DNA from: Paramacrobiotus metropolitanus
Taxonomy: Eukaryota; Tardigrada; Eutardigrada; Parachela; Macrobiotidae
Assembly: GCF_019649055.1 (NCBI RefSeq)
Contig: NW_026570260.1
Location: 620,001 to 684,000, forward strand
Direction: 5' to 3'
Length of the DNA: 64,000 nucleotides
In this document: positions 47,486 through 63,660 of the stretch, one piece after another
Position numbering within the stretch: the first letter of the stretch is position 1
Layout of the letters: every line of letters starts with the position of its first letter
Translations under genes and position numbers: made by a program
Notes under the pieces: generated by a model
Told to the model about the DNA's origin: nothing
Databases searched by the model: none
What the model saw: the letters and a program-made list of their open reading frames with translations, nothing else

Positions 47486-49831
47486 ATGGATGAAGAAGAG
47501 GGCGAGCAGCCGGAGTCACCGGAGGAAGGGTCGGAAGTGCAGCCGCCCCGCGTAGTGGAACCGCCCGAGCCCACACTAGCCCCGGACCCGGAGGATGTTC
47601 TGCTGAAGAGCGACGCCGATGCATTAGGTGCGACAAGAGCGCGCTGAACACTCCTCAATACATGCCGTAAGCAACTCCTGATTACATTAATGTTGATGTT
47701 ATGGGATGCTTCGTCATACTCATATTGAACTAAGTTTCACATGATTCCTGCACCTATTGCACCTGTATGACACTCCACATAGAGATATGTACAGTACGTA
47801 TCCCAGTCTACGCATTTTTAACAATCGCTAGTGCATCGCGTCCTAAAAACTCGCTGAAAGTAATGCGGAAATTCTTAATAGGAGAAATCAGCCGCTACGA
47901 TGCAACAGTAGCCTTGCACAAGAAGACAGTGGCATAGAAATGAAAATGAGCTGAAGAGGGAATGTAAGCAACTAAAGCATTTGAAAAAATTCATAGCGGA
48001 ACTACGTAAATATAACTATACTTAAATTGTATAATTATTCACATGGATACTGGAAATCCAGGATATCGTACATAATATTTTTAAAAGATGGCAAAGTCTT
48101 TACATTCCGGTCTATTGGCTGAAACGTTTGCGATTACGCGCTCTGGTATAGTCCTGTACGAGTATAGTTAATTAACCAATTTAGAGTGTTTAACCAATTT
48201 AGAGTGTTTGAATAAAGTAACCCTGTAATGTAACCCCATAATTCTTTTACCTAATGGTAACTGTAAAACTTGCTAGGTACAATCCTTTAGAAGCCTACTC
48301 CAGATATTTCAAGCGATTACGGTATTTAAAATGAATTTGCCCATTGGATTTAAAACTGTATTTTCGACAGGAGAAACGGATTGGCTGGAGCAGGCAGTGG
48401 ACATTGCCTATCACGCTCCCAACTTAACCGTTCCCCTCTACAAATTCATCCAGGAGGGCTACGGAAAGTTAGGACGTCGACTGAACCAGCCCCTACTGAC
48501 AGAGGGCCTGTCGATGCTGGCCAAGACCATTTCCGGTCTGGGACACGTCTTCGTCCGACTGGACCTGCCAGGTCGCTCCCTCGTCGACATCGCCGCCATC
48601 CAGCACCTCCAGCATTTGCGCTACGTCGCTCTGCCCGGCAACCATCTGCTTGATATCCGGCCGCTCAATCAGTTGCACTTCCTTATGCAACTCGATCTGT
48701 CCGATAACTATCTCCTTTCCATGCAGCCCTTGGAGGTAGCAATAGCGTCAGTGCTTGTACAACAGATTATAGATTATCAGCGCAATGTAAGGTTTAACTG
48801 CACATTATGGAGTCAGTATTTAGTTTTCAATCAACAAACTGAAAAAATAAAACGTAAAGTTTGGTTTTGGTTAGTTTGCAAAATTAACTGACTTAATAAG
48901 TTTATTCTTTGACAACGAGCGTTAATTCTCGTAGTCAAAGAGTAAACTTATTAAGTCAGTACTGTTATTAACAATATTCTTGCTAACAGTCCCAGTGTTT
49001 TCAGCATAGCGCCTTGTCACAGGAAATGTGCAAATACATTTACAAATTTTGTGTTAATTTATTAAGCTGGTGTTGCCTCGTAGCCGCACCCCTTCTTAAA
49101 GGTTATAAACGTGAGCAAAAACTTCTTGAAAGATTTGCGCGGTATTGAGGAGCAGCCGCATCTGCAGCGCCTGTACATTAGCTACAACAAGCTGTCGGCC
49201 TTCAACTTGTCGCAGACCAAGTTTCTTAAGGATCTCGATACACTGGAAGTGCGAAAAAACCGTCTGCGCACATTCGACGCCGTACTCCCTTCGCTGAAGA
49301 CGCTGTTTCTGGCGCAGAACTGCATTGACACTCTGGGTGAATTCTCTTGTACACCTAAGCTGGAGTTCATTGACTTACGGCGCAATAAAATCCGCTCGCT
49401 ACAGAAATGGCAGATTCCATATTTAAAGTACGTAATCAAAACGGCAAGCTCCGTTACACGCAAAAGAGAATATGCTTATACGTGATTGTGCATTTAATCG
49501 TACAACTATTAGTGAATGACCGGTTAATTAACGTACATCCATGTGCCAAGGAAAACTGCAGATCTTTGATTGTGGTAGATACCTGAATTTATCGTGGAAT
49601 TATTTGGAGAATCTGGAGGAAGTATTTGGTGTGTTGAAAGACTTACCGGAACTACAGACGCTGGTGATGAGCAATAATCCGGTGTGCGAGAACATGGAAC
49701 GGCTGCAACAGCACGCTATGGTTAGCTGTCCAGCACTGAAGCGCTGCAACCAGATGCTGGTCACCAAAGAACTGCGCCAGGAAGCAGCACAGCAACTGTT
49801 GGAAGAGGAAAACGACAAGCCCTCTGGCTGA
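47486..49831 (+). CDS. LRRC23: LRRC23-like leucine-rich repeat protein (axonemal radial spoke)
   Basis: LRRC23 is a radial-spoke component of motile cilia and sperm flagella. Exons: 47486-47627 (acidic MDEEEGEQPESPEEG leader), 48371-48736, about 49100-49430, and about 49573-49831. LTEGLSMLAKTISGLGHVFV followed by RSLVDIAAIQHLQHLRYVAL matches the LRRC23 start (EGLSLLCKTGNGLAHAYV, RDLTDIYLLRSYIHLRYV). Leucine-rich repeats follow: NHLLDIRPLNQL, NYLLSMQPLE, NFLKDLRGIEEQPHLQRLYI, LKTLFLAQNCIDTLGEF, LEFIDLRRNKIRSL, YLNLSWNYLENLEEV. The cap LQTLVMSNNPVCE ends in a Glu-rich helix like the family's. All splice phases join correctly. Orthology is likely but rests on pattern memory. Confidence 0.82.
48173..48208 (+). 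repeat. 18-bp tandem duplication
   Basis: The word taaccaatttagagtgtt occurs twice in direct succession (48173-48190, 48191-48208) in the first intron of the LRRC23-like gene. Confidence 0.9.
48887..48960. repeat. 74-base inverted repeat (hairpin) in an LRRC23-like intron
   Basis: Left arm 48887-48913 and right arm 48934-48960 are reverse complements over 27 bases with one mismatch. An inner acgag...ctcgt pair extends the stem, leaving a loop of about 8 bases. It lies in the intron between exons ending at 48736 and starting near 49100. It could be a small mobile element remnant or a structured RNA. Confidence 0.92.
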
Positions 49832-50142
49832 CCAGTGAATCAGATGAATTGTTGCTACGGTTTGATTATACAGTAACGACAAATACGCTTTGTGTATCTG
49901 GTGGTAGACCAAATGTATAAGGTGTCGCTGGAGTTATGCCGGGTTTATGTCTGTTCGCTGGAGGCCGCGACCAGTATCGCGCAATAACACTTCGTCCTAC
50001 TGGTAAACACGGGAGTGGTACTAGAATTACTGAACACTGTGAACAGCATCATAAAATACACACAAAACCACGTCTAAAAATCTGTCAAACAAACAGTTAT
50101 CATAATTTTATTACAGTATCAATTAATAAACTCAAGGCCCTG

Positions 50143-51742
50143 TTATTCAGTCGCATCGGCTCCATCAAGCTGTTCCGTTTCTTTGGCGCATGTGGTCGAA
50201 AATTTTCCGTTGATTTCCATGGGTAATGCAGAGTGCTTGATACAGTGGCGCGCCATCTTGATGATTTGGCTGCTTCTAAAGCGGCAATCAGCGCACACCA
50301 GGAGTGCGTTGCGACATAACTGCTGATGCTGACCGCCTAGCAAATGGGAGATTAGCGTCTGCTCCGCTTTGCAATGGAACTGGCACCCTTCGCAGCGATA
50401 CGGATGCGGTGAAGCATGACAGCCGATGATGACCTCCTTTGCCGATGAATTAAAGACGACGGTGTGCACGCTGGTTGGCATGATGGACTCGTGAGCATGA
50501 TTGTTCCGAAGCGGCGCCTGTCGGGAAGGCATTCGAACGTTCCTCCTTCTCCTCCTCGGGAAGGACGACCTTCTCCCGTAACAGTGAGCTCTTCGGCATG
50601 GTAGCGCGGCTCGAATTACGTGGTTTACCTTGCCGTTTCCGTCTTATGGTGCCTCCATGCCTTCTGCTGTCTTCAAAAAAAGTTTATGCAAAAGCAAAAC
50701 TAAGAAAACCCAAAAGAACTCACTCTTCAAGAAGCGCTGCTTGACGTCTTTGCCAGCCAGATGCAGTATTTTGGATACCGTCGGCATACTCAGACCGACA
50801 CGATCACAAATTACACACATACTTAGGTCCTCTTGGAACAACTGACACACCAACTGCTTCTTCGCGTTACTCGCCCTCGACATTCCTCGGCCTGAACCTG
50901 ACCCTTCAAGATAAGATACAGCAATATCAACAATTTAATTCATGGGAGTAGCGTAAGCTAACCATTACCACTACAGAGAGAGAAGGCAGAACCAGTGTGG
51001 CTCTGCCTCCTTTACTGGGAACACGCAAAAACGAGGCTTAAGGCGGTGCTTTCCACGTGAGACCTCTACCAGTTAGTGTACTGCCTCGTATGTCTAAACA
51101 AGCCAGAAAGGGGTTCAGAACCCAACCCGTTCGCCATGGGACAGAAATAAGTTGCGGAATAATAAGAGATACGGAATACAGGACCGAGACACCTTTTTGT
51201 TGCGAGTGGTTTACATTTACACAGTGTCTTCACTGCACTTACTGCCAGACAAGGTTTTGCCGACCAACAGCAGCTCCCGTTGCACATCGTACAGCTGCAC
51301 TCCGAGGGTACCGGCGATCTTCCGTCCAGTAGAGCCCTGTTCAAACATCCCGTAAATGGCTTGCCGCTGTGCATCGGTGATGTTGCGTCGACGTAATTGT
51401 CGATCAGGCCGCTCGACGGCAGTTATCCGATTAGAAGGAACCACGCCGCTGCGGTTGGTCAAATCGAGTTCGGGGAACTCCGGCGACTGTCGACCGCCAC
51501 TGGATGGTCCACTGTGCTTCTGCGTTGACTGATGGCGTCGCTTGCCTTCAACGGATAAAGCGCGCGGACTGATTGATTGAGCAGTTGCCAAGTTGTACAA
51601 ACGACAGCATCTATGCGTTTTTTCCCTTTAGCACTCAAGACTCACTTTTTGCTGGCTGTTTTGCGCTGACAACAACGTTTTCGCCAATCGCACTACGTGG
51701 CCGAAGCCGACGACGCTCAGGTAGGCTCTCCTGCCTTTCCAT
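50143..51742 (-). CDS. HTH-repeat/zinc-finger protein, paralogue A
   Basis: Unrecognised family; see the other two copies. Exon 1 is 51742-51646: MERQESLPERRRLRPRS, ending in a gtgagt donor. Exon 2, about 51551-51243, has a helix-turn-helix block with TDAQRQAIYGMFEQGSTGRK then IAGTLGV, and a gtaagt donor. Exon 3, 50897-50724, has a second block, KKQLVCQLFQEDLS then VICDRVGLSMPTVSKILHLAGK. A basic stretch follows, then the last exon from about 50560 to the stop at 50143 with two C2H2 fingers: C-x2-C-x12-H-x5-H in YRCEGCQF...SHLLGGQH, and a complete C-x2-C-x12-H-x3-H in CADCRF...KMARHCIKH. The HTH pattern resembles resolvase and Tc1-type DNA-binding modules. It is likely a nuclear DNA-binding protein. 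Joins between exons 3 and 4 are uncertain. Confidence 0.65.
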
Positions 51743-52578
51743 AACTGCCGTCTCATGCGTTGACAGTAATTATTAAGCTTCGATGATACGCACAAAGAAT
51801 ATGGCAGAATTGGTTCAAATTTTTATTTCACACCATCTGTGATTTGTGAAGCATGTTCTACTGTCACCTAATTCAGCCTCGATCTGATGGTGAGCATTAG
51901 CAAGCAGCAATGAGCCATGAGGCTAGGCTGAGTGAACGAGCGCAAGAGAACCGAACGCAGGCAGCGGTTTATCGTGCGGTTCGTACTTCGTTCCAATCAT
52001 TGCACGTGTACGCTACCTCACGTTTTGATTTTGTTACGGTCGGTGGACGGCGGACGCCATGTGCCGTGCCATGTTATCAGTATTCTGTAGATTCATCATT
52101 GTGGCCGATACGTTGCATTTTCGAAGCTTTCTGATCAAGAAACGTACTCGTACTGGTAGAATAATAGACCAGCGCATCCGCTTCAGTTATGCACTATGTG
52201 TCTGTAGTCCGAAAATTCTTTTCGGTAGTGTCGCGAGTTGGAGACTGTTGCGAAATGTTTCTTTCAAATGGTTGAGGCAAAAGCGACTAATTCTGCGAAA
52301 CTGCTGAAGGTTGCAGTTTTCTCACGATAGTATCAATCATCTGCGGCCAGAGAAGCATCGAGAATTAAAAACACTTAAAAAACGTTGTCCGATGTGGTTG
52401 GGCATTGTTATTCGACCTAACGCACAGATTGCATAGTTTGCATCTAACAGTTTTCTTTCGCTGGTCACCCTATAAGTTCATGGTCATGGAGCAAAATTTA
52501 GCGTAGAAGTTTTCGTCGCTTTTGGAGAAATCTTCGGTGGATAGTTTAAATAGTCTTCTGTCAGCCAGTTCATCGAAA
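51743..52578. promoter_or_regulatory. Shared upstream interval of HTH/zinc-finger paralogues A and B
   Basis: About 0.84 kb separates the outward-facing starts of two paralogues. A shared promoter is inferred from orientation. No named motif is seen. A further 5' exon of paralogue B could lie here. Confidence 0.4.
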
Positions 52579-54075
52579 ATGGATGCCACGCGTGCGAAGG
52601 TGTTGAGCATGTTCGATGCGGGCTGCACCACACGGCAGATCCGGCAAAAGACGCATATCAGCGAGGAGAATCTGAGGCGGTTGCTAAAGAGAACCGCTCG
52701 AAGCTTCAAGCAGCGCAATAACGCCGCGATTAGTCCCATTAGCGACCAAAAGCGACGCCAGATTGTGCGGTTGTTTGACGCGGGATGTACCCAACTGCAG
52801 ATCATGCAGCAGGTGGGAGTACATGCCAGTGGGGTAAAGAGAGTTCTTAAGCACGCTGGGAAAAGCCTCACACTGCGCAACCGCGATGCCGTATGGCAGA
52901 GCAGGGCCACGCCAGCGCAACGAGAGCGCATCTGCCAGATGTTTGACGAGGGTTGCAGCCGACTGAAGATAGGGAAGAGCGTTGGTATGACAAAGAATCA
53001 GGTGGAGCGGGAACTGGCACTAGCCGGCAAAATCCTCTATAGGTTTCCACATGGCAAGTACAGAGTACTTCCGACAGAACTCCGAAAGCGGGGTCATTTT
53101 TCATAGTTATTAATAGACGGTTAATTCAAACAACTGTTTTGTCGTACTTCGGTATGGCCGTATCTAATACATAATTATGTGTTTCTGTACGTTCGCATTA
53201 CAGGACTCTTCAGAATGCTTACATATAACTCAAATTTCGAAGCGTCCGGGATTAATAACTTTGTTCAAGTTATAAAACTGGTATCGACGAAGAAATGCTT
53301 AAGAACTTGCACCTGTTGATTCCAAGTTACATCGTTTGGCTTAAACGGTTGCAGTGCTGGAAAAAGCTCTCCGTGGCAAACAAGTTCTCAACGCCACAGC
53401 CATTTCTCAACCCGAAAACGAACGTAGTCAAAATGACGGAAACAGAGGAGACAGTGTATCTCGGCGTGTCTTACTGCGGAGAAGCAGCTGTCTGACAGAC
53501 AAGCCGGAAGAAACGCTAATGGCCCCTACGAATGCAGCAGAATCCTATGATGACGGAAACGGTAAGAGGCACCGTTTATGTACCCGTTGGTTGATTATTA
53601 GTCATACTGCCAGCAAAAATGTGACCACCCTTCTTTTGCAGAGCCTAACACTCCTGCATATTCCGTGACCTCCTTTGCCGGCGGGAAACTCCATGTGCAG
53701 GCCCAGGCGTCAAAAGTCCGCCTCGCCGAAGGAATCGTGCGCCACGCCCTTACAGGAAATTCAAACATCAAACCCGAGCAAGCCATGGAAGAATGCCGGC
53801 GAGATGGCGCTCCTGTTGCCGGCAAGGGGCAGCGGTATGCGTGCAGTACGTGCCAGCTATCATGGCACCATGAGGACGATCTCCGATCGCATCTGCTAGG
53901 CGCCGTACATCGCAAATTGGCAGCCAGTGGAGGCTTCTTTGCTTGCACGGGATGCTCCTTCAAAAGCCGGAAGCCGCTGAAGATGACCAACCATATTATC
54001 GTCTATCAGGCGCGCTCCCGTCAAGAAAGCGAAGGGATAGTGCACACTGCCGCTGTGGCTCCTCCGGAGGCTTAA
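52579..54075 (+). CDS. HTH-repeat/zinc-finger protein, paralogue B
   Basis: Starts at ATG 52579 (MDATRAKVLSMFDAGC). A single exon to about 53060-53091 holds three consecutive repeats of about 55-60 residues: KVLSMFDAGCTTRQIRQK, RRQIVRLFDAGCTQLQIMQQ and RERICQMFDEGCSRLKIGKS, each followed by a helix ending near RxLKxAGKxL. A Ser/Asn-rich exon from 53355 to 53562 follows. The last exon, 53642-54075, carries two fingers: YACSTCQLSWHHEDDLRSHL then GAVH, and CTGCSFKSRKPLKMTNHIIVY. In the second finger the fourth zinc ligand is Tyr, not His. A polyA signal AATAAA is at 54184-54189. The middle join near 53090/53355 is tentative. DNA binding is inferred; target and role are unknown. Confidence 0.7.
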
Positions 54076-54943
54076 CTGCGATGTGTGGCTGTGTTGGTAC
54101 GTCTGCCGAAGATTATGCTAATTTTTTATGATCAGGCTCCGTTGTATGCGTTATGCTGACATAACCTTAAAACTTGTGATCGAATAAAAATTTTTATTAG
54201 TCATAAATGTTTGTATAGTGTGCGACAGTGATGAATACGAATCATTAACCGATCTCTCCTGCCCTCTGATTGCGTATCTGTATAATATAATTATATGACA
54301 TTAAAGTGTACTATGATCACTGAACAGACCAAATTAAGAGTATTATGGGCAACTAATTTGTAAACTCAAACTAGGCATGGCTTACATACATTTCGATTCA
54401 TTTAAGTTTATTGTTACGGAACTGTATATTGCTGAATTAAATATAAATAAATTAAGAATGAATAAAACAAATGTGTAAATACGAATTAACACGAGCGTAA
54501 TAATGCATAAGCATCTTTTCGGCAAATACGAAGCACGTGCTCGGCGCGATTGTTAAGTAGCATGCCGAGCGAACCAAAATAAACTTATACAGATCTCTAT
54601 AGCCTCTCACATTTTATAATTGCCATTGACCACGATCGACACACAATGTCGGCACGGTAGAATCAACAAAGGATCACAAGTAATTCGACAATGACATTGC
54701 ACGCTGCGTTGCTAAACATCGCTTACAGAAGCAACATCGCTCTTTACAGCCAGTCAGTCTGACTCTGCAAGAATGGACAGCGCTGCACACAAGGGCCAAA
54801 TGTCGTCACGGCATGGCATCCAGTCAAGCCAAACACCGGTAACTGCTCTTAACTCTGGGCTGTACCACTTATTCAGGCGCTGCTCATTTGCTCAACGACC
54901 AAAGAACGAGACTGCTTATGAATTAGAAGCGTGACCTTTGCCC
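54076..54943. other. Intergenic region between paralogue B and the Rh gene
   Basis: About 0.87 kb, AT-rich in the first half. It holds the 3' end of paralogue B and the likely promoter of the Rh gene. No other gene seen. Confidence 0.4.
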
Positions 54944-57294
54944 ATGTCCATGTACTTCACCAGCAGCCGCTTTGCGGCTTTTCTCTTCCTCAGTCAAGCC
55001 GGGTTTATCATTCTGTTTGGATTCCTGGTAGATTACGGCTGGGATGCCACGCCGGTGTCACTGCGCGAACGCCAGATGGGCGATCTGGTGCAGGACGACG
55101 TGGACGCCGGGCGAAATGTGGATTTCAGTGCGCCGCGGAAGTCGCTTGAGCGATACTATGGCAGTATGTTGACTTTACACCATTCGGCCCGCGAGAACAG
55201 TATGCATGCGCGGTTCCTTTGTAGTGTTCCAAGATGTGCACGTGATGATCTTCGTCGGTTTCGGATTTCTCGTGGCCTTTATGAGAAAGTAATACACTTT
55301 TCTTTCAAAACTTTAGCAACACTAATATAAAAAATTTTCAAATATAAAAATTTTCACGGAAATCTAAACTAACGTGGTGTGTTTATAGTTATGGATATAG
55401 CGGGGTGGGTTTCACCTTTATCCTTGCCGCATACGTCCTGCAGTGGGCGCTGCTGATGCGCGGCCTGCTGCGACTACAGGACAACCGAAACCGCATTCGC
55501 TTGGACGTTGAGAAGTTAGTCACCAGCCAAATACTATTATTGCAATCATTTTGGCACAAACAGTTGACAGTGACTTGGTTTCCTCAGCCTTCTGGACGCC
55601 GACTTCACCGCCGGTACAATCCTCATCACTTTCGGCGTCATTCTGGGCAAATTAAACCGTTTGCAATACCTAATCACCATCTTCATGGAGGTGGTCTTCG
55701 TCACCGTCAACGAGTGGATCTGCATGGATCTTTTCAATGCCAACGATGTCGGTGGCACCATCACCATCCACCTATTCGGAGCGTACTTCGGGCTGGCCAT
55801 GGCGAAGACGCTGCACCTGGACGAGTACTCGGACAGCAAGTTCAACACGCTGAAATTCGGGACGCACTATAATGATCTGCTGACGATGATCGGCACTTTG
55901 TTCCTCTGGATGTTCTGGCCCAGCTTCAATGCGGCACCGGCTGTAGGCGACGGTCGCTACCGGGCGGTGATGAATACTTACCTGTCGGTGTCGGCTAGCT
56001 GTATCGGGGCATTTATGATCTCAGCCGTGACTTCGAATAAGCGATTTCGAATGGTAAGCATAAGCGACACACATTACTCAATTAAATGGTTGTGCGTATT
56101 TTTTGAAGTTCGTACTTGACCTTTCCAAATCTGTAAACCTGTAGAGGTCGCCTTAGAAAAGTATAACAAAAGCGTGCGTTGTATATGAGTCTATGACCAT
56201 ATATAACTTGTTCTTCATGTAGGAACAAGACTTTAGTGTACCCCTAATTGGTGTTTTCATTTTTGAAGTTAAACTTTGGCGTTTTTTTTTCGTTCTGCAG
56301 GACATTATCCAGAATGCCACTTTAGCAGGGGGTGTGGTCATTGGTTCGGCATGCGATATGTACTTGTACGGATGGGGAGCGCTAATTGTCGGATTCTGTG
56401 CGGGCTGTATCTCTGCTCTCGGCTTTCACTTCATCATGGTATGCTATAATTGTGATAGCAGCCGGTTGAATCTGAACTGTATTTCGGCCTCTTGTTGCAT
56501 TGGGCCGAAATGCCGAAATAACGAATATATACTGTGCGTTTACCAACTTCACATTTTAGCCACTGCTAGAAGAGAAACTTGGGCATCCATGATACGTGTG
56601 GCGTCCACAATCTGCACGCCATGCCCAGTTTCTTCGGGACGATAATGAGCGCGATCGTGATTGGATGCGCCACGCCGGATGTTTATGGGTCAAGGTAACG
56701 GAAGGTCACTTTTCACTGGCCGCAGCTTCTTTTTGTAAATAGCTGTACAATTCAGAATAATTCAGTGCAAACAACTGCTATGTATATTGTGCAGCTTTTA
56801 CACGATGTTCCCAACAACCGCCCCGCGCGCCAATACCACCGAACTGGCCCAACTGCAGTCCATCTACCCGGATGTTCGGCCTGGACTGGGGCGTACTATC
56901 GGACAACAAGCAGGCTACCAGATGGCCGCCATGGCCACCACCCTGGGCATCGCCATTTCCGGTGGCATCGTGACCGGTAAACCTTCTTACATTTTCAGTG
57001 TATTTCTTCGATTCTCGCGTTTTAAATGATCGTTAATTTGGCAGGGTTAGTGCTCAGGTTAGCATGGTGGAAGGGTCTATCGGCCGGCAGTTCCTACAAC
57101 GATAGTCACCATTGGGAAGTCCCGGAGGAAGTAACCCACGACGAGATCCACACGCTGCGCCATCGGCTGGACAAGAAGGCCCCTTCGGTCAGGATATCCA
57201 TAGTAATTTCAGCACGCTGGAGAAAGCCACCAGTACGACGGAGATTGCGCTGAATAACCCGGCACAGTTTTCGCAAGACGGTTATACCCATTGA
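54944..57294 (+). CDS. Rh-type ammonium transporter (RhCG/Rh50-like)
   Basis: A multi-pass membrane channel for NH3/CO2 of the Amt/Mep/Rh family. It starts [18 protein letters not shown]. Signatures: [18 protein letters not shown] (about 55221-55289), [56 protein letters not shown] with the first pore His, [53 protein letters not shown] with the second pore His, and [14 protein letters not shown]. The cytosolic tail ends QDGYTH. Two frame problems: one extra G in GGG at about 56579-56582 (needed for KLGIHDTCG), and one missing base in CCCC at about 57180-57184 before [15 protein letters not shown] at 57379-57384 is a likely polyA signal. Confidence 0.93.
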
Positions 57295-58250
57295 CTCCGT
57301 TACTGTCTACTGAATGAAATATGAATATTATTATCTGTAATGAACTAATGGTTAGAATAATAATAAGTGCAACGCAGAATAAAAGCATTTATTTATATGT
57401 ATAAGCGATCTATCTGTATAATTACTGACGTCTCTGAGCGATGAAAAATTATCAACCGTTTTATTTACAGAGGGTATTTTGTATAAACGTATTAAGCGGT
57501 GCAACATTATTAACCAGTCCTTCCGCTCCCGATTTTTGACTTGGTGCATTATACTCTGTAGGTTTTCTTGTTGGCGCTGCCTCTTACTCCGTTCCTTACT
57601 TTTAGTGGCCAACAAAAATCATAATTGTTTTCACTTACCACTTGATTTCGTCATAAGTGCTTCTTTATAAAAATTATTGGCTTGCCGTTCAGTAAATATT
57701 TCGCAGGCTGTCGCTACTTCCGGTGCAGAAGCTACACAAAACACACGCCGTCACGCGAAATACCAATAAATGCTGTCACCGATTCACTGCTGTAATTTTT
57801 GAACGTGAAATGATCTAGAAATTAACGAAACTTAATGTACCGAGTGCAAAATGAAAAGCAGTGCGCCGGATGTGTTTAAAGCGCGCGTAAAGGTTGTGTA
57901 TTAAGTGAAAAGTTATGGAGAATGTCTTCGACCAAGTGGAGTGGACCAAGTGGTCACCATAATTTTATGTAAAACTATCAGATTTCAGATGTGCAGTAAT
58001 ACGTGAACAGGAATGACCCGAATGAGAAATATTACGGTAAATTGAATCATGAACGTACAATAAAATAATATTACAGTGTGGTAGTACCCAACTGTGCAGG
58101 GTTTTGCTGATTTAAATAATAACAAGAAGAAACTTCGTGACCAAAGGTCCAAAGCTGTCAGTAAAATATAAAAATAAAAAAAGAGTTTAACTGAGCAGAT
58201 CGGAGGCAGACTAAGACTGATCATGGGTTGTTGTGGGCTAGAGAACCTGA
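57295..58250. other. Interval between the converging Rh and GPCR genes
   Basis: About 0.95 kb, AT-rich, expected to hold both 3' UTRs. No coding evidence. Confidence 0.4.
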
Positions 58251-60773
58251 TCATGGATTAACAGTGTAGACAGTAAAGGGTTGAATGGTGGTGTGATTGG
58301 TTGCATGTGATCGGGGATGACGCGGAGTGGACGGCACCGTGCCGGCATTGTGGGCGCCGCCATGCTCTGGCTCGTCCAGGCTGACCGACCGGCGTTTGCG
58401 GTGGCACACCGTCTCGCGGAAAGCCTGTCGGAAGCGGAAACTCATCACGTTGTAGATGATGACGTTGATGATTCCGTTGCCATAATACGCACAACCTGTA
58501 TACACGTCCGTTAAACTTTTGCATCCTAGGAAGCAAAAGTGAAGCAGGCCTGCTTATGGTTAGCTGAAATACAGACACATATCACACAAATCAGTTTCGC
58601 GAAAGAGTCAAGGCTGTTTACGCCTGTCTGAACCACTGCTGGCAGTTTAGCTTTCCATTCCTGATTTCGCAGTAGTAGAAGAATCGCAAAATAGACGCTC
58701 TAAGTAATGCAACAATGATCCACCAAATTATGGATGTATAAACGTAAAATACGGTGGGAGAACGTAAGCAAAGCCCGGAGATGCGAGTACTGAGAAGTAG
58801 GGAGGAGTTACGTATACTGGACGGTGATAACATTTTAGTTATCTTTGGTTACTTACCGGCAACCATATACAGCGCCGCATTGGCCGTTGTCACCTGCTGA
58901 TCCCAACGATCGACCGTTGACCATAACAAACGTTGAGCATGGAAAGGTGACCAGCTCAAGAAGAACACGAGGCACACCGCCACTGCCATCATACAACAAC
59001 CAACTCTGGTTAAAATTTCGCGTACTTTCAACTAGGAGGAAAATTATGTAATTATATGATTATTGAAGCCAATTTGCAAAATACATAATAGTTATTAGAT
59101 AATTTTGCTATATGATTTTGACTTATCTGACGGATGTGTATTTACCAAGCATGAGAATAGTGGACTTGCGGGACTGGGTGCGCGATGCCCCGGATAGCGA
59201 TTCGCTGTTGGACGATTCGGATGTCCCCGAGCGAGCGTGCATGCCGCTCAGTTGGTAGCGTTTGGTGGGGCTGCGCAGTGTCAAAGCGATCAACCCGTAC
59301 CTACTCACATAGCATACCGTATAAAAAAATTCACAGTATATAGTTTAATCTACCGAGAGTTAGATTGCATACAAAACAGTGAGGAGCCCCATGGGCAGAA
59401 AGAAGAAAGCAATGGCGTGACAGAGGAACAGGGCAAAGACCTGTCGCTGGCGTTCGTGGTCGAAGCTGCACCAGCCCGTTCCCGGGATGCGCTGCAGGCT
59501 GTCGTCGAGCGGGTAGTACACGTGGTTGACCTTGGCATAGTGAGCAAAGGGAGCCGCCAGGAAGAGCGCAAACAGCCAGATGAGGATCACCAGAGTGCGA
59601 CTGCGCGACACCGTCACTAGTCGCTCTGTGCGGAATGGATGGCAAACTGTAAACGTACGCACATTTTATGCACCAACAATCATCGCATCCATTCATTTCC
59701 AGAGCCGCCGTTTACAAAGCATCAACAACGCATAGATACCCATTAATGCAACCATCATTGCACATGATAGTATAATTATACGATTGTGAGAATATTACTC
59801 TACTTCTAGTATACAAGTGATGTATAGTTGTATCATCGTAATATAGTTGTATCATCGTTACTACCATTAAAAGAATCCAGATTTAAATGGTTTGTTGTTA
59901 AAAGAATAAAGTACGTAATACTTAAGTGCTGAAGAATGCACTGAATACCTTGTGTATGGTAATATAACTATGACTGTCGTAACTACGATAACCTGTAAAC
60001 TAGTTTTACAGTATCACCCGTGAATTTCTAATTATTGCTTACTTGCAAGATACCGTTCAACAGTGAAGGCAGTGATGGTCATCACGGAAGCGCACGCTGT
60101 CAACGGTTATAAACATGAGGATAAACATGACGCCATCCTCGTGCAGATTGTAAAGGTCATGCTGGCAGTTTTCACAATTGTGCAGTACTTACTGGTCATC
60201 TCGGCCAACAGCGCTCTTCCAGTGCACACAAAAGAGGGGAATTCAAACTGCAAAATTAACAGCGCAGTGGTAATGCTGCAGTTATGCGTCTTATGACAAG
60301 ACCATCAGCTTGGTGACGATGTGCGTAAGTATTCTTACAATAGAACAGTACATTGTCACCGAACTAAACTGAGGTCCGTTATATTATCTATGCGGGCTTA
60401 CATTGCATTCTCGCATCCAGAAAGAGTACAACTCCATTGGAACACCTAACACAAACAAAAAATTGTGCCTTTTGCACAGTTGCACAAGATATTTTTCAAC
60501 GCAGATGCAAGAAGTAAACGGAAGTTGGCAAATAGACCAGGCAAGGTGAGTGCCGATCAGCTGCCTACCGAAGAGCAGCATGAGAATATCCGCCACCGCC
60601 AAAGAGAACAAATAGCAGTTGGTAGAGGTGTGCATGTACGGCGTCTTGACAATGACGAAGCAGATGAAGACATTCCCGATGATCCCGCTGAGGAACAACA
60701 GAATGTAGATCACTGTGACGGGAACAATGAAGCCAGCCAGATCCTGGTACGCATAATCGAAATCCGATGCCAT
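58251..60773 (-). CDS. Peptide GPCR of the neuromedin-U/pyrokinin/CAPA receptor group
   Basis: Class A seven-helix receptor. Exons: 60773 to about 60562 (MASDFDYAYQDLAGF; TM1 IYILLFLSGIIGNVFICFVI; TM2 NCYLFSLAVADILMLLFG); microexon 60445-60402 (GVPMELYSFWMRECN); about 60255-60195 (FEFPSFVCTGRALLAEMT); about 60105-60054 (CASVMTITAFTVERYLA); about 59649-59375 (ICHPFRTERL, TM4, second loop with GWCSFDHE, TM5); about 59309-59148 (third loop ending SRKSTILML); 58982-58857 (VAVCLVFFLSWSPFHAQRLL, the TM6 signature of this group); about 58499-58251 (TM7 and tail). ERY replaces DRY, which is usual here. NPxxY in TM7 is NVIIY, which is not. All joins are in phase. The ligand is inferred only from the family. 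Confidence 0.88.
59823..59858. repeat. Short tandem repeat, 19-base period
   Basis: tatagttgtatcatcgt occurs at 59823-59839 and 59842-59858 in a GPCR intron. Confidence 0.9.
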
Positions 60774-61410
60774 GGTTAGCAGAAGCGGAGCTGATCTTAA
60801 TACAGTTTGTGACGGCTAAGGAATATACGCGATCCATGCTGGACACGTTTCTGAATTTCAAGTTTCAGTGTCTTTTAAGCACAGTTGGCAGAAACCTCGA
60901 ATAGTGACGGTGTACAAGATAAATAAATACCTTCCATCGATGAAACACAGGACCCAGTGTTAGCGCGCTACATTCCGCGAGCCGTTAGTCATCATCGAGT
61001 GCGGCATGCGACTCTCCAACAGATGCTTTACTACAGTACGGTTCAAAGTGCTATCGTAAGGGATGTCATGGAAGCTCCTTACGCATCGGCAATGTCATCA
61101 TCGCGAATTTACACACTGCTGATGGAGTTTCAACGAGCAGCTCATTAATACGCACGATAATTTCATTGCAATTAGTCTCCTTAGCATTGCACTATGTTTC
61201 ATAAACCAAGCTCGAAACTGTTCAGCACTTTTAAAATACAACGACAACTGAATTTTATAACAACTTATACAATCAACGTCTTGTTATTTATGCACAACCA
61301 CGATTAAGCTAAGAGAAAAATATACAGAATTTGAATTATAAAATGAACGAAAGCGCCGGTAAAGGAGCGTATCTGTGCATCGGCCAACAGGAAAACAGCG
61401 ACGTCAAAGG
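60774..61410. other. Interval between the GPCR start and paralogue C stop
   Basis: About 0.64 kb, expected to hold the GPCR promoter and the paralogue C 3' UTR. No gene recognised. Confidence 0.4.
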
Positions 61411-63660
61411 TCAGTCGACGGCGATAATCGCGTGGCGGTGTGTTTCATTGGACACCGCGTGGAACTGGTAGGTGGCGACATGTCCGGCCATTTTCTTAGG
61501 CTGGCGCGTTTGAAAGGTACAGCCGCTGCAGCGAAGCACGACTTGGTGAGCGGCCAAAAGCGCGTGGTTTTGATTGAGCAGGTGCGAGACGAAGAGCGTT
61601 TCATCCACCGAATAGAACTGGCACAGGTCACATCGGTACTTGGCCGGGATGTCGTGGGTCGTTTCCTTCAAACATTCTTCGTTAATCTGCGACCTATCGA
61701 TTTTTTCGCCGGGCTGGCACGCAGAGTCGCTCCCGCTTCTTTTAAACACTCAGTTGCCGTTTCCTTTCCGCTGATTGCCAGGCTATAGTTTTCGTTGCCG
61801 AAAGTCCTTGTGACGCATTCCGATGTCATTTTATCGGCTTCGTCCGCGATTGCCGGTGTCGATACGTACTGATAAAGCAGCGCAAAGTCTGCTGCGATGT
61901 CACTGATATTCAAACAGTCGGATCGCGGAACACCAACGGCTGTTGTGGCGAAAGTATCATCTAGACACTGTTTCGCGGCGACGTTGTCACAGCGTCCGGC
62001 AGCGTTATCCTGTAACACCTGGTAGGCCGCAACCCCATTCTGGTCAGTGCCGTGGCCGATCGCAGCAGCGACGTCGCTGGGGTGTTCGTTAGTCAGTGCT
62101 TCTATGTTATAGTCGAACATAACGGCGCTGTACAATCGTATGTAGGCTTCGGCACTTTCCATTCGGGCTGCGTCCTCGCAGATGGCCTCCTTTTCAAGCC
62201 AACCCGCATCCAACGGTTTCGCGCCGTCTTCCCCATTACTGCACACTCGGACGGCATCCGCACGCGTCTCGAAAGCATCCGCTTGGCCCGTTGTCACGTC
62301 GGGTATTGGGACGGCGCCGGTCCACAAACTACTGACAAATTCTTCTGAAGATTCCGTCACAAGGAGATCGCCGGATTTAATAGGGATCTCTGCATCGATT
62401 ACCCGTGGCTCCACTAGTGGAGCCAGTACTGGATCGAGGCCGGTTGGGAGATCATCCTGGTCGGTGACCTGCGACGTACTGGGAGCGTCGGAATCGGCAT
62501 TAACTACGGCATCCGTCACTGCACATTCCATTGGATCTATGGTAATGGAGAGATCCCCGGTGATTTCGATTGTGGATTCTCTAACGCTGGGACCATCATC
62601 GAGGTCAGTCACAGCCGTCACTGGACTCACTGCCATGTCAGCAACAATGACTGGAATATTGTCCATAGCTGCGGCCGTGAACTGTGAAACCTTGCAACCT
62701 GGATCCAAATCGGCACGGTTCGTTGCTTCTGTGGTTACTGTTTCAATAGCGGTTGGAACAGTATTGGAATTATCATTGTTAACCAACGGACCGTACACCG
62801 ATTCCAAGTAAACCTGCAAACAGTCACTGCCTTCCACAGTAGAACTTTCGTCGATTGGGACTCGGTGCTTCGATGCTGGCGCCAGCGAGAGGGGTATGGT
62901 TTCGACTGCAACGGTTGCACGGTGCGTCGGCAGGATGCTGACATCAACAACTGATTCTTTAGCGTGGAGTGCGGCAGAATTGTTCGCATCCGCATCTGCA
63001 AAACGGCCCATAAAGCCATCCTTATCAGTGCACACAAACTAAAGTCAGCGTACCAATTTCAGCGGGAATTTCTGGATTTGTCCGTGACGCTGACTGTAAG
63101 AAAATCTCCCGGCTGACCAAGGACAATGTGATGCCCAGCTGTTCAGCAATACTTCCCATGGACTGCCCCTGATTATACAGCGTGCGGATGGCTTCTCTCT
63201 GCGCGGGAGTGGCACGCAGGCTGCTGCCGGTAATCTTGCCGCGCATGAACAGCACATACCGCACTGTGTTCTCCGCCGTCTTCAGGCGCTTGGCTATGCG
63301 GTCGAGTGGGTAGTCTTTGTCGAAGAGCTCCACGATGTCCTCTTGGACGCGCGGCGTAGGCATGCGCTCGCGCTGGGAGGCCTTGCGGGGATTACGAGGT
63401 TGCCGGCTCAATCGGTCAGCGAAGCTCTTGCCGGCGGCGCCCACTACTTTGCACACGGTGGTGTAAGATTTGCCCGCGCGCTCCATAATGGTCTTCTGAG
63501 GTAGTCCCTCATCGAACAGGCGTAGAATCAGAGCTTCCGGTGTCTCTTTGGCCTCACTCGCGGGCTCCGACGGCTGCTTGGACTCAGTCGTTTCATCTGC
63601 AATGCATACGCTGTAAGCAGTGTTCAATTCCAAATTCGCTAAACTTAGCAATGCACACAC
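61411..63660 (-). CDS. HTH-repeat/zinc-finger protein, paralogue C (5' end not found)
   Basis: Largest copy of the family. One exon (about 63613-63054) carries three helix-turn-helix repeats: ALILRLFDEGLPQKTIMER, QEDIVELFDKDYPLDRIAKR and TPAQREAIRTLYNQGQSMGS. A 58-base intron (63053-62996) joins in phase to exon 62995-61411. That exon encodes about 420 acidic, Ala/Thr/Asp-rich residues without recognisable domains, then two fingers: YRCDLCQFYSVDETLFVSHL then NQNH, and CSGCTFQTRQPKKMAGHVATY. As in paralogue B the last zinc ligand is Tyr. An A6 run at about 61717-61722 marks a one-base deletion between linker and fingers. The first exon and ATG were not identified and may lie beyond 63660. DNA binding is inferred. 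Confidence 0.65.

What the first reader, a model, noticed from the sequence alone, without database searches (positions are those of the whole stretch)
50143..63660. Local three-gene family joining HTH repeats to a pair of zinc fingers
Three genes (50143-51742, 52579-54075, 61411-63660) share an architecture I do not recognise: two or three helix-turn-helix repeats of about 55-60 residues (consensus I-x2-LFDxG-x6-I-x6-[LIV]-x4-V-x3-L-x2-AGK), a variable linker, then two C2H2-like fingers (YxC-x2-CQ...SHLL-x3-H...C-x2-C-x-F...KM-x2-H). The last HTH in B and C begins TPAQRE(A/R)I, like TDAQRQAI in A, so the repeats have orthologous positions. HTH units look like resolvase or Tc1-transposase binding modules, so domestication of a transposase DNA-binding region is possible. 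This is the best candidate for an undescribed system.
Basis: partly seen in the sequence, partly recalled or inferred. Interest (0 to 1): 0.85.

Follow-up and report, generated by a model that had tools for sequence, protein, structure and literature searches.

The report
Clustered helix-turn-helix array DNA-reader gene family
Three odd genes in this animal genome turn out to belong to a family of some seventy or more loci whose proteins carry strings of DNA-gripping modules that change fastest where they would touch DNA, joined to a much less changeable pair of zinc fingers, which looks like a little-known way for an animal to build a large, fast-evolving set of DNA readers.

Summary
Genes A, B and C each have 2-3 helix-turn-helix (HTH) units upstream of an exon with two C2H2-like fingers. 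Merged searches of the same genome give 70 finger loci on 19 contigs and 93 HTH blocks on 22 contigs; 38 and 54 of these lie in one 0.55-Mb array on contig C51 (one of the 70, on C49, is an ordinary C2H2 gene). Open frames carry up to 10 HTH units, with five positional types in the main clade. The units resemble the Sleeping Beauty PAI subdomain. In 15 of 15 disjoint paralogue pairs, the predicted DNA-facing residues change faster than the rest of the HTH surface; the fingers are conserved. A smaller branch mounts the fingers on a SAMD1/KAT6A-type winged helix. Best reading: an amplified repertoire of sequence-specific DNA readers with a constant effector module, analogous to KRAB or FiNZ zinc-finger families but built from HTH arrays. 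DNA binding, targets and expression are untested; omega above 1 is not shown, so relaxed constraint remains possible.

The parts
51259..51372 (-). Gene A, HTH unit 1 (TDAQRQAI...)
   Evidence: profile hit E 3e-10; HTH_38 E 0.011, below cut-off
50898..51242 (-). Gene A, predicted phase-1 intron between HTH exons (GTAAGT donor)
   Evidence: join is open and in frame; not RNA-verified; an acceptor 6 bases further on is equally in frame
50752..50865 (-). Gene A, HTH unit 2
   Evidence: profile hit E 2e-13; HTH_23 E 0.0017, below cut-off
50230..50400 (-). Gene A, two-finger domain
   Evidence: profile hit E 1e-21
52585..52695 (+). Gene B, HTH unit 1
   Evidence: profile hit E 5e-10
52747..52860 (+). 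Gene B, HTH unit 2
   Evidence: profile hit E 5e-14; best stretch of HTH_23, 31.2 bits, over cut-off
52915..53028 (+). Gene B, HTH unit 3 (TPAQRERI...)
   Evidence: profile hit E 1e-13; best stretch of HTH_38, 29.0 bits, over cut-off
53562..53641 (+). Gene B, predicted phase-1 intron between linker exon and finger exon
   Evidence: GTAAGA donor, TTTTGCAG acceptor, in-frame join reading ...DDGNEPNTP...
53836..54009 (+). Gene B, two-finger domain
   Evidence: profile hit E 2e-25
63430..63537 (-). Gene C, HTH unit 1
   Evidence: profile hit E 1e-10; best stretch of HTH_23, 39.9 bits, over cut-off
63238..63345 (-). Gene C, HTH unit 2
   Evidence: profile hit E 2e-8
63097..63204 (-). Gene C, HTH unit 3 (TPAQREAI...)
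   Evidence: profile hit E 2e-7; best stretch of HTH_38, 49.9 bits, over cut-off
62996..63053 (-). Gene C, predicted 58-bp phase-1 intron between HTH exon and linker exon
   Evidence: in-frame join with no stop; shifting the donor by one base either way gives 27 or 18 stops
61690..62995 (-). Gene C, long linker exon (3' end uncertain)
   Evidence: open frame, no Pfam hit
61465..61638 (-). Gene C, two-finger domain
   Evidence: profile hit E 5e-24; the exon was the query that found 70 places genome-wide

Best explanation
A, B and C are members of a large, tandemly amplified family of predicted DNA-reading proteins. The N-terminal part is an array of up to ten HTH units that resemble the Sleeping Beauty PAI subdomain, each offering one recognition helix to DNA; a multi-HTH array would read a long composite site. 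After gene duplication the base-facing residues of those helices change, so paralogues come to read different sequences. The C-terminal pair of C2H2-like fingers is kept nearly constant and serves as a shared docking, oligomerisation or effector module; in a side branch the same module carries a SAMD1/KAT6A-type winged helix instead. The whole most likely acts as a lineage-specific repertoire of sequence-specific regulators, in the manner of KRAB-, FiNZ- or ZAD-zinc-finger families, perhaps silencing repeats. Shown here: architecture, amplification, clustering, faster change at predicted contact residues, conserved fingers, alternative head. Inferred: nuclear location, DNA binding, a shared partner, regulation or silencing.
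For: Architecture and copy number. HTH identity: Pfam HTH_23, HTH_7 and CENP-B_N over cut-off in 4 of 5 HTH exons scanned outside the window (not L015); PDB profile hit to Sleeping Beauty PAI. Diversification: in 15 of 15 disjoint paralogue pairs dN at the chosen recognition surface exceeds that of other HTH surface and of core; pooled omega 0.77, 0.37 and 0.27. Site rates in 28 genes: recognition set 1.40, other HTH columns 0.77; permutation p 0.0008 over 38 columns, 0.010 over 22 surface columns. With a contact set taken from the Sleeping Beauty PAI docking model (R36, S37, Q40, T41, R44, K45; PMC11754664, passage): p 0.0002 and 0.003 by site rate, 8e-5 and 7e-4 by pN. Finger omega 0.09-0.28 with own dS in 7 of 7 pairs, against 0.43-1.44 for the rest of the same exon. 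HTH then finger on one strand in 33 of 39 loci; phase-1 splice sites. Same fingers on a different DNA-binding head.
Against: No DNA-binding, expression or target data. Omega at contact positions is not shown to exceed 1: columns 27, 28, 31, 32 give 0.87 (bootstrap 0.73-1.04), 27 and 28 alone 1.06 (0.84-1.36). Contact residues exceed the inter-domain linkers in only 10 of 15 pairs, so relaxed constraint fits too. Measured against exon-wide dS the fingers are slower than the rest of their exon in 6 of 7 pairs, not in L037/L038. My own contact set was chosen after I had seen the column entropies. Column 29 of that set is slow by site rate (0.65). Caenorhabditis F-box A2 proteins carry a Tc1/mariner HTH that failed to bind the tested DNA and may bind proteins (PMC12062965, passages). 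A single-sequence search of gene B's HTH block against solved structures found nothing. 13 of 70 finger loci had no HTH block within 7 kb; C49 is an unrelated gene, several have the winged-helix head, and C55:295625 does have HTHs that the searches missed (L027). 17 of 100 HTH places contain a stop, so some copies are decayed or read across introns.
Confidence: 0.62

Rival explanations
1. The HTH arrays are protein-interaction modules, as suggested for Tc1/mariner HTH domains in Caenorhabditis F-box A2 proteins; diversification tracks protein partners rather than DNA.
For: PMC12062965 passages: F-box A2 HTH domains did not bind the tested transposon-like DNA and may mediate protein interactions in an amplified nematode family. 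Contact residues here evolve about as fast as linkers.
Against: The fast columns coincide with DNA-contact residues of the closest natural solved HTH, including column 16 (Sleeping Beauty L25), while helix-1 surface and core are slower. The side branch carries the fingers on a head matching SAMD1_WH and KAT6A; WH1 of MORF/MOZ recognises unmethylated CpG DNA (abstract).
Confidence: 0.15
2. An ordinary expansion after domestication of a Tc1- or pogo-type transposase DNA-binding region, with relaxed constraint rather than adaptive change, and many copies on the way to pseudogenes.
For: Closest natural solved relative is a Tc1/mariner transposase subdomain. 17 of 100 HTH places contain stops. Omega at contact sites is not shown to exceed 1. 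Transposon-derived factors are amplified in several animals (PMC10027918, passages).
Against: HTH core and fingers stay under purifying selection in the same genes. No transposase catalytic domain listed for the HTH exons scanned. No HTH_SB match at E 0.01 in the genome, so no source element was found.
Confidence: 0.2
3. The family is still a mobile element or an accessory gene of one, amplified by transposition.
For: Members lie on about 20 contigs and the HTH is transposase-like.
Against: The largest group sits in one largely co-oriented array (36 of 38 finger loci on C51 on the minus strand); several members share phase-1 splice sites; no catalytic domain listed; no relatives among viral contigs (close relatives only).
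Confidence: 0.03

Closest known systems
KRAB-, FiNZ- and ZAD-C2H2 zinc-finger families (PMC10547256, abstract and passages seen)
   Same: Tandem DNA-binding repeats in clustered, lineage-amplified genes, a constant accessory domain, and fast change at base-contact residues.
   Different: Here the variable repeats are HTH units and the constant part is a pair of zinc fingers, the reverse arrangement; omega above 1 not shown; transposon repression untested.
Pipsqueak (HTH_psq) proteins
   Same: Tandem HTH repeats of about 50 residues in an animal protein (recalled; the link of psq to pogo transposase is in a passage of PMC10027918).
   Different: HTH_psq is not among the families listed for the window exons or the other members scanned (four lists were cut at 25 families); up to 10 units; no BTB domain listed; finger pair instead.
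Sleeping Beauty / Tc1-mariner transposase PAI subdomain (PDB 2m8e, 6urs)
   Same: HTH unit matched over 44 of 53 profile positions, E 4.2e-8.
   Different: Long arrays, no catalytic domain listed, joined to fingers; below the Pfam HTH_SB cut-off.
ZHX1 double C2H2 finger (PDB 2ghf)
   Same: Both fingers align with the two-finger profile, E 1.6e-6.
   Different: MBP-1 (E 1.7e-6) and CTCF chains match nearly as well, so this is a general C2H2 likeness; no homeodomain is listed for the exons scanned.
KAT6A/MORF winged-helix region
   Same: Side branch on C7, C91 and C86: SAMD1_WH matches E 2.6e-11 to 3.2e-5 in 4 exons, 3 over cut-off and 1 just below; PDB match of one exon to KAT6A (7y43), E 4.6e-9.
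   Different: The winged helix lies upstream of the finger pair; no acetyltransferase domain is listed for the exons scanned.
Caenorhabditis F-box A2 family with Tc1/mariner HTH (PMC12062965, passages seen)
   Same: Lineage-restricted amplification of genes with a transposase-like HTH.
   Different: HTH joined to F-box and FTH domains; it did not bind the tested DNA.

Membership tests
HTH_23/HTH_38/HTH_7 (homeodomain-like HTH superfamily, Pfam) | score over curated cut-off | tested here: met
   B and C over cut-off, A below; L009, L033, L037, L039 over cut-off for HTH_23 and HTH_7, L015 not
Sleeping Beauty HTH (HTH_SB) | score over curated cut-off of 43 bits | tested here: not met
   at most 29.6 bits in the members scanned; no match at E 0.01 in the genome
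Tc1/mariner or pogo transposase | DDE catalytic domain in the same gene | tested here: not met
   none listed for the window exons or for five other HTH exons (in one search the lists of four proteins were cut at 25 families; unscanned exons are not covered)
Pipsqueak (HTH_psq) | HTH_psq model match | tested here: not met
   not listed (16 exons, 9 of them with HTHs; four lists cut at 25 families)
Pax paired domain | PAX model match across both subdomains | tested here: not met
   L037 scores 28.4 bits, over the cut-off of 22, but its best stretch covers positions 16-62 of 125 only, one HTH; gene B 13.0 bits, below cut-off
KRAB/FiNZ/ZAD-ZNF type repertoire (as a functional class) | tandem array of C2H2 fingers (five or more in the survey of PMC10547256) | tested here: not met
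   two fingers only
KRAB/FiNZ/ZAD-ZNF type repertoire (as a functional class) | base-contact residues evolve faster than the rest of the DNA-binding repeat | tested here: met
KRAB/FiNZ/ZAD-ZNF type repertoire (as a functional class) | omega above 1 at contact residues | tested here: inconclusive
   0.87 (0.73-1.04) for four columns, 1.06 (0.84-1.36) for two
KRAB/FiNZ/ZAD-ZNF type repertoire (as a functional class) | binds or represses transposable elements | not testable with these tools
   needs DAP-seq, ChIP and RNA-seq
C2H2 zinc fingers | Cys and His ligands retained across paralogues | tested here: met
   C-x2-C...H-x5-H in finger 1 and C-x2-C...H in finger 2 are kept in 35 of 42 aligned segments; losses or truncations in L005, L013 (two pieces), L016, L017, L025, L031. 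The fourth ligand of finger 2 is H-x4-H in the A-like group; many C51 genes have a later conserved His instead
C2H2 zinc fingers | score over a Pfam zinc-finger cut-off | tested here: not met
   all listed zinc-finger matches are below cut-off, the best KIN17-type at 25.8 of 27.7 bits in L026

The most novel reading that the evidence does not exclude
Animals have a second kind of evolvable, clustered genome-surveillance repertoire besides poly-zinc-finger proteins: long arrays of transposase-type HTH units that retarget by changing recognition-helix residues, joined to a constant finger module that can also be mounted on a CpG-reading winged helix. The arrays would constitute a natural modular DNA-reading scaffold of up to ten HTH units.
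Probability: 0.35. Interest if true: 0.92.

Novelty: new variant of a known kind. Interest (0 to 1): 0.76.

Why it matters
Clustered, fast-evolving DNA-binding repertoires in animals are known chiefly for C2H2 zinc-finger arrays. A family of some seventy or more loci that does the same with HTH arrays would be an independent solution. It would show that such repertoires do not depend on the zinc-finger fold, and it would offer a natural multi-HTH scaffold for studying modular DNA recognition. It is directly testable by DAP-seq of a few paralogues with different recognition helices.

Tried and rejected
A known single-copy transcription factor: rejected, the genome has about 70 finger loci. Pax or CENP-B relatives: two such genes were among the HTH_23 hits (L049 Pax-type and L050 CENP-B/pogo-type, by eye) and differ from the family. 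Viral origin: two scans of viral contigs found no relative (they reach close relatives only). Sleeping Beauty-type transposases as a source in this genome: none at E 0.01. Naming the organism: a Lipocalin_7 search gave one gene whose listed PDB matches are fatty-acid-binding proteins (60 of 242 shown), so it did not help. Structure prediction and so fold search: not possible. C49:1019107 proved an ordinary multi-finger C2H2 gene and should be removed from the 70; one search adds four finger loci on C7 and C91 that are not among the 70. C4:3482924 has a finger pair but no head that I could recognise.

Rows left out and choices made: one search used 28 of 32 ORFs with four or more HTHs (L007, L009, L010, L067 left out; of L037, L038 and L039 only the first five units entered), and HTH 2 was placed by hand because of a one-residue insertion. 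One search used 12 HTH-exon pairs and 7 finger-exon pairs that share members; one search replaced the former by 15 disjoint pairs, 9 that are sisters in the tree (support 92-100) and 6 chosen by similarity alone. My contact set was fixed before the dN and rate tests but after I had seen the column entropies; the Sleeping Beauty set came later from the paper and its numbering was fitted by me through the alignment. Core and surface classes are my assignment from the consensus, not from a structure. share genes. The splice-site scan is a simple pattern scan without a control.


Full report
What is there. The window is G000:C40:620001-684000 of a 169.8-Mb genome in 533 contigs. Genes A (minus strand), B (plus) and C (minus) have 2, 3 and 3 HTH units and one two-finger domain each. 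HTH units pass Pfam cut-offs in B and C, not in A; the fingers pass none but share 17 of 59 invariant columns. Three splice joins are open and in frame with matching phase 1: A HTH1-HTH2, B linker-finger and C HTH-linker. The other three joins are unresolved.

It is a large family. A search with gene C's fingers gave 70 places at E up to 10, gene B's HTH block gave 118 places at E up to 1, and two further queries gave 67 and 100 places at E up to 0.01. Merged, these are 70 finger loci on 19 contigs and 93 HTH blocks on 22 contigs. One finger locus, C49, is an unrelated C2H2 gene; a later query adds four finger loci on C7 and C91. Contig C51 holds 38 finger loci and 54 HTH blocks between 6.5 and 558 kb; 36 of the 38 finger loci are on the minus strand. 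Of the 70 finger loci, 57 have an HTH block within 7 kb; for 53 of these the nearest block is on the same strand and for 46 it is also 5'. The 11 exceptions are 4 with the nearest block on the opposite strand and 7 with it on the same strand but 3'; four of these seven also have a 5' block 2.5-5.5 kb away. Of the 13 without a block, C55:295625 has HTHs that the searches missed (L027). The tool says counts of large families are lower bounds; hits near E 1 may be chance.

Anatomy. I fetched 71 loci for this analysis. Of loci L001-L039, chosen from the hits, 33 of 39 have HTH unit(s) followed by fingers on the same strand; L031 has them on opposite strands, L014, L029 and L030 showed fingers only, and L021 and L032 HTHs only within the piece fetched. 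Open frames with a confident unit carry 1 to 10 HTHs (66 frames: 9 with one, 15 with two, 10 with three, 12 with four, 15 with five, 2 with six, 1 with nine, 2 with ten). L037 and L038 carry two blocks of five. An alignment of 28 genes shows five positional HTH types, each recurring in the same place, though not every gene keeps all five. In a pattern scan of 21 genes, 7 HTH exons of the C51 group end at a phase-1 donor in the same motif (L011, L015, L016, L018, L019, L020, L036) and 5 finger exons start at a phase-1 acceptor in the same motif (L008, L018, L019, L020, L036); no donor passed the pattern in 3 of 21 and no acceptor in 6 of 21.

What the units are. Pfam puts 4 of 5 HTH exons scanned outside the window over cut-off for HTH_23, HTH_7 and CENP-B_N, among other HTH families; for L015 no HTH family is listed at E 0.01. 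Against solved structures, gene B's block alone finds nothing; a profile of 21 units matches a repeat protein labelled 'CAP REPEAT' best (8vd6, E 8.1e-14 summed over five repeats), then the Sleeping Beauty PAI subdomain (2m8e, E 4.2e-8, single unit). The finger pair matches the ZHX1 double finger (E 1.6e-6) and several other C2H2 proteins almost as well.

How it evolves. Per-site rates on a 28-gene tree: my six recognition columns average 1.40, other HTH columns 0.77, columns outside HTHs 1.25; permutation p 0.0008 among 38 columns and 0.010 among 22 surface columns. For Sleeping Beauty PAI, helix-3 residues R36, S37, Q40, T41, R44 and K45 are modelled in the major groove and L25 contributes to binding (PMC11754664, passages; docking models supported by NMR shifts). 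Through the alignment I place these on columns 27, 28, 31, 32, 35, 36 and 16. Tested as an outside set the six give p 0.0002 and 0.003. In 15 disjoint paralogue pairs, recognition dN exceeds other-surface and core dN in 15 of 15 and linker dN in 10 of 15; pooled omega is 0.77 recognition, 0.37 other surface, 0.27 core, 0.65 linkers; the five columns with the highest pN of 38 are 28, 27, 31, 32 and 29. Column 29 is slow by site rate (0.65), so it is not consistent. Bootstrap intervals do not exclude an omega of 1. In seven finger-exon pairs (L004 used twice) the finger region has omega 0.09-0.28 with its own dS, 0.05-0.39 with exon-wide dS; by the latter measure L037/L038 fingers are no slower than the rest of their exon. 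So the HTH scaffold and fingers are preserved while the predicted DNA face is freed or driven to change.

A second head. Finger loci on C7, C91 and C86 have no HTH block nearby. Upstream on the same strand, in four fetched genes, is an exon with a SAMD1-type winged helix, three over the Pfam cut-off and one just below; the one compared with solved structures matches KAT6A (E 4.6e-9; that this is WH1 is recalled). MORF/MOZ WH1 recognises unmethylated CpG (abstract of PMC9908889). Twelve SAMD1_WH matches exist in the genome, ten of them on C7, C91 and C86, and the finger query from this branch finds HTH-family fingers as weaker relatives (E 3.9e-7 to 0.009). The finger pair is thus the shared module and the DNA-binding head is exchangeable; that the winged-helix and finger exons form one transcript is inferred from order and strand.

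Comparison and novelty. The nearest functional analogues are KRAB and FiNZ zinc-finger families: clustered, amplified, with positive selection at DNA-contacting residues and, for FiNZ, repression of transposable elements (PMC10547256, abstract and passages). Transposon-derived factor families, including HTH-psq, are amplified in several animals (PMC10027918, passages). A Caenorhabditis family with a Tc1/mariner HTH is a warning, since that HTH did not bind the tested DNA (PMC12062965, passages). I found no description of this family in the listings of searches for tardigrade with HTH and zinc-finger terms, tandem HTH and psq terms and Paramacrobiotus. In two tardigrade comparative papers the words zinc finger, HTH and helix-turn do not occur in the main text, and a C4 zinc-finger survey that includes P. 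metropolitanus has no HTH mention in its main text. Subscription papers and preprints were not searched, and no other animal genome was available, so how far the family extends is unknown.

Verdict. Observation confirmed and greatly extended; new variant of a known kind (clustered, evolvable DNA-binding repertoire) built on an HTH array with a nearly constant finger pair. DNA binding and function are inference.

Noticed in passing
G000:C7, C91, C86 (L073, L074, L075): A side branch joins the same finger pair to a SAMD1/KAT6A-type winged helix, in small clusters on C7 (about 1485-1518 kb) and C91 (469-490 kb); a second, H1-like winged helix may be split by the following intron (by eye).
   Followed up: partly
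G000:C40:687724-687900 (L028): A fourth local relative just outside the window with one detected HTH and a finger pair.
   Followed up: partly
G000:C97, C161, C461, C31, C143, C55 (L040-L044, L046, L051): HTH arrays with no finger exon found in the pieces fetched; fingers may lie further away, as in L037 and L038 (over 4 kb), or be absent.
   Followed up: partly
L037, L038 (G000:C44, C151): Two close paralogues on different contigs with ten HTH units arranged as two blocks of five.
   Followed up: partly
C51-group finger exons, e.g. L008 and L033; gene B and gene C C-termini: A recurrent His 16-17 residues after the second finger's His (often H-S/A-V-K) may replace the missing fourth ligand.
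   Followed up: no
L009, L010, L044: A further shared motif (YDDFFGGEY.V...A...G....R.R..L) downstream of the HTH arrays looks like a degenerate extra HTH unit (by eye).
   Followed up: no
window 48277-61000: Neighbouring genes by eye: leucine-rich repeat protein (48-50 kb), ammonium-transporter-like protein (55-57 kb), rhodopsin-type receptor (58-61 kb).
   Followed up: no
L049 (G000:C119), L050 (G000:C12): A Pax-type paired-box gene and a CENP-B/pogo-type HTH gene in the same genome (by eye).
   Followed up: no
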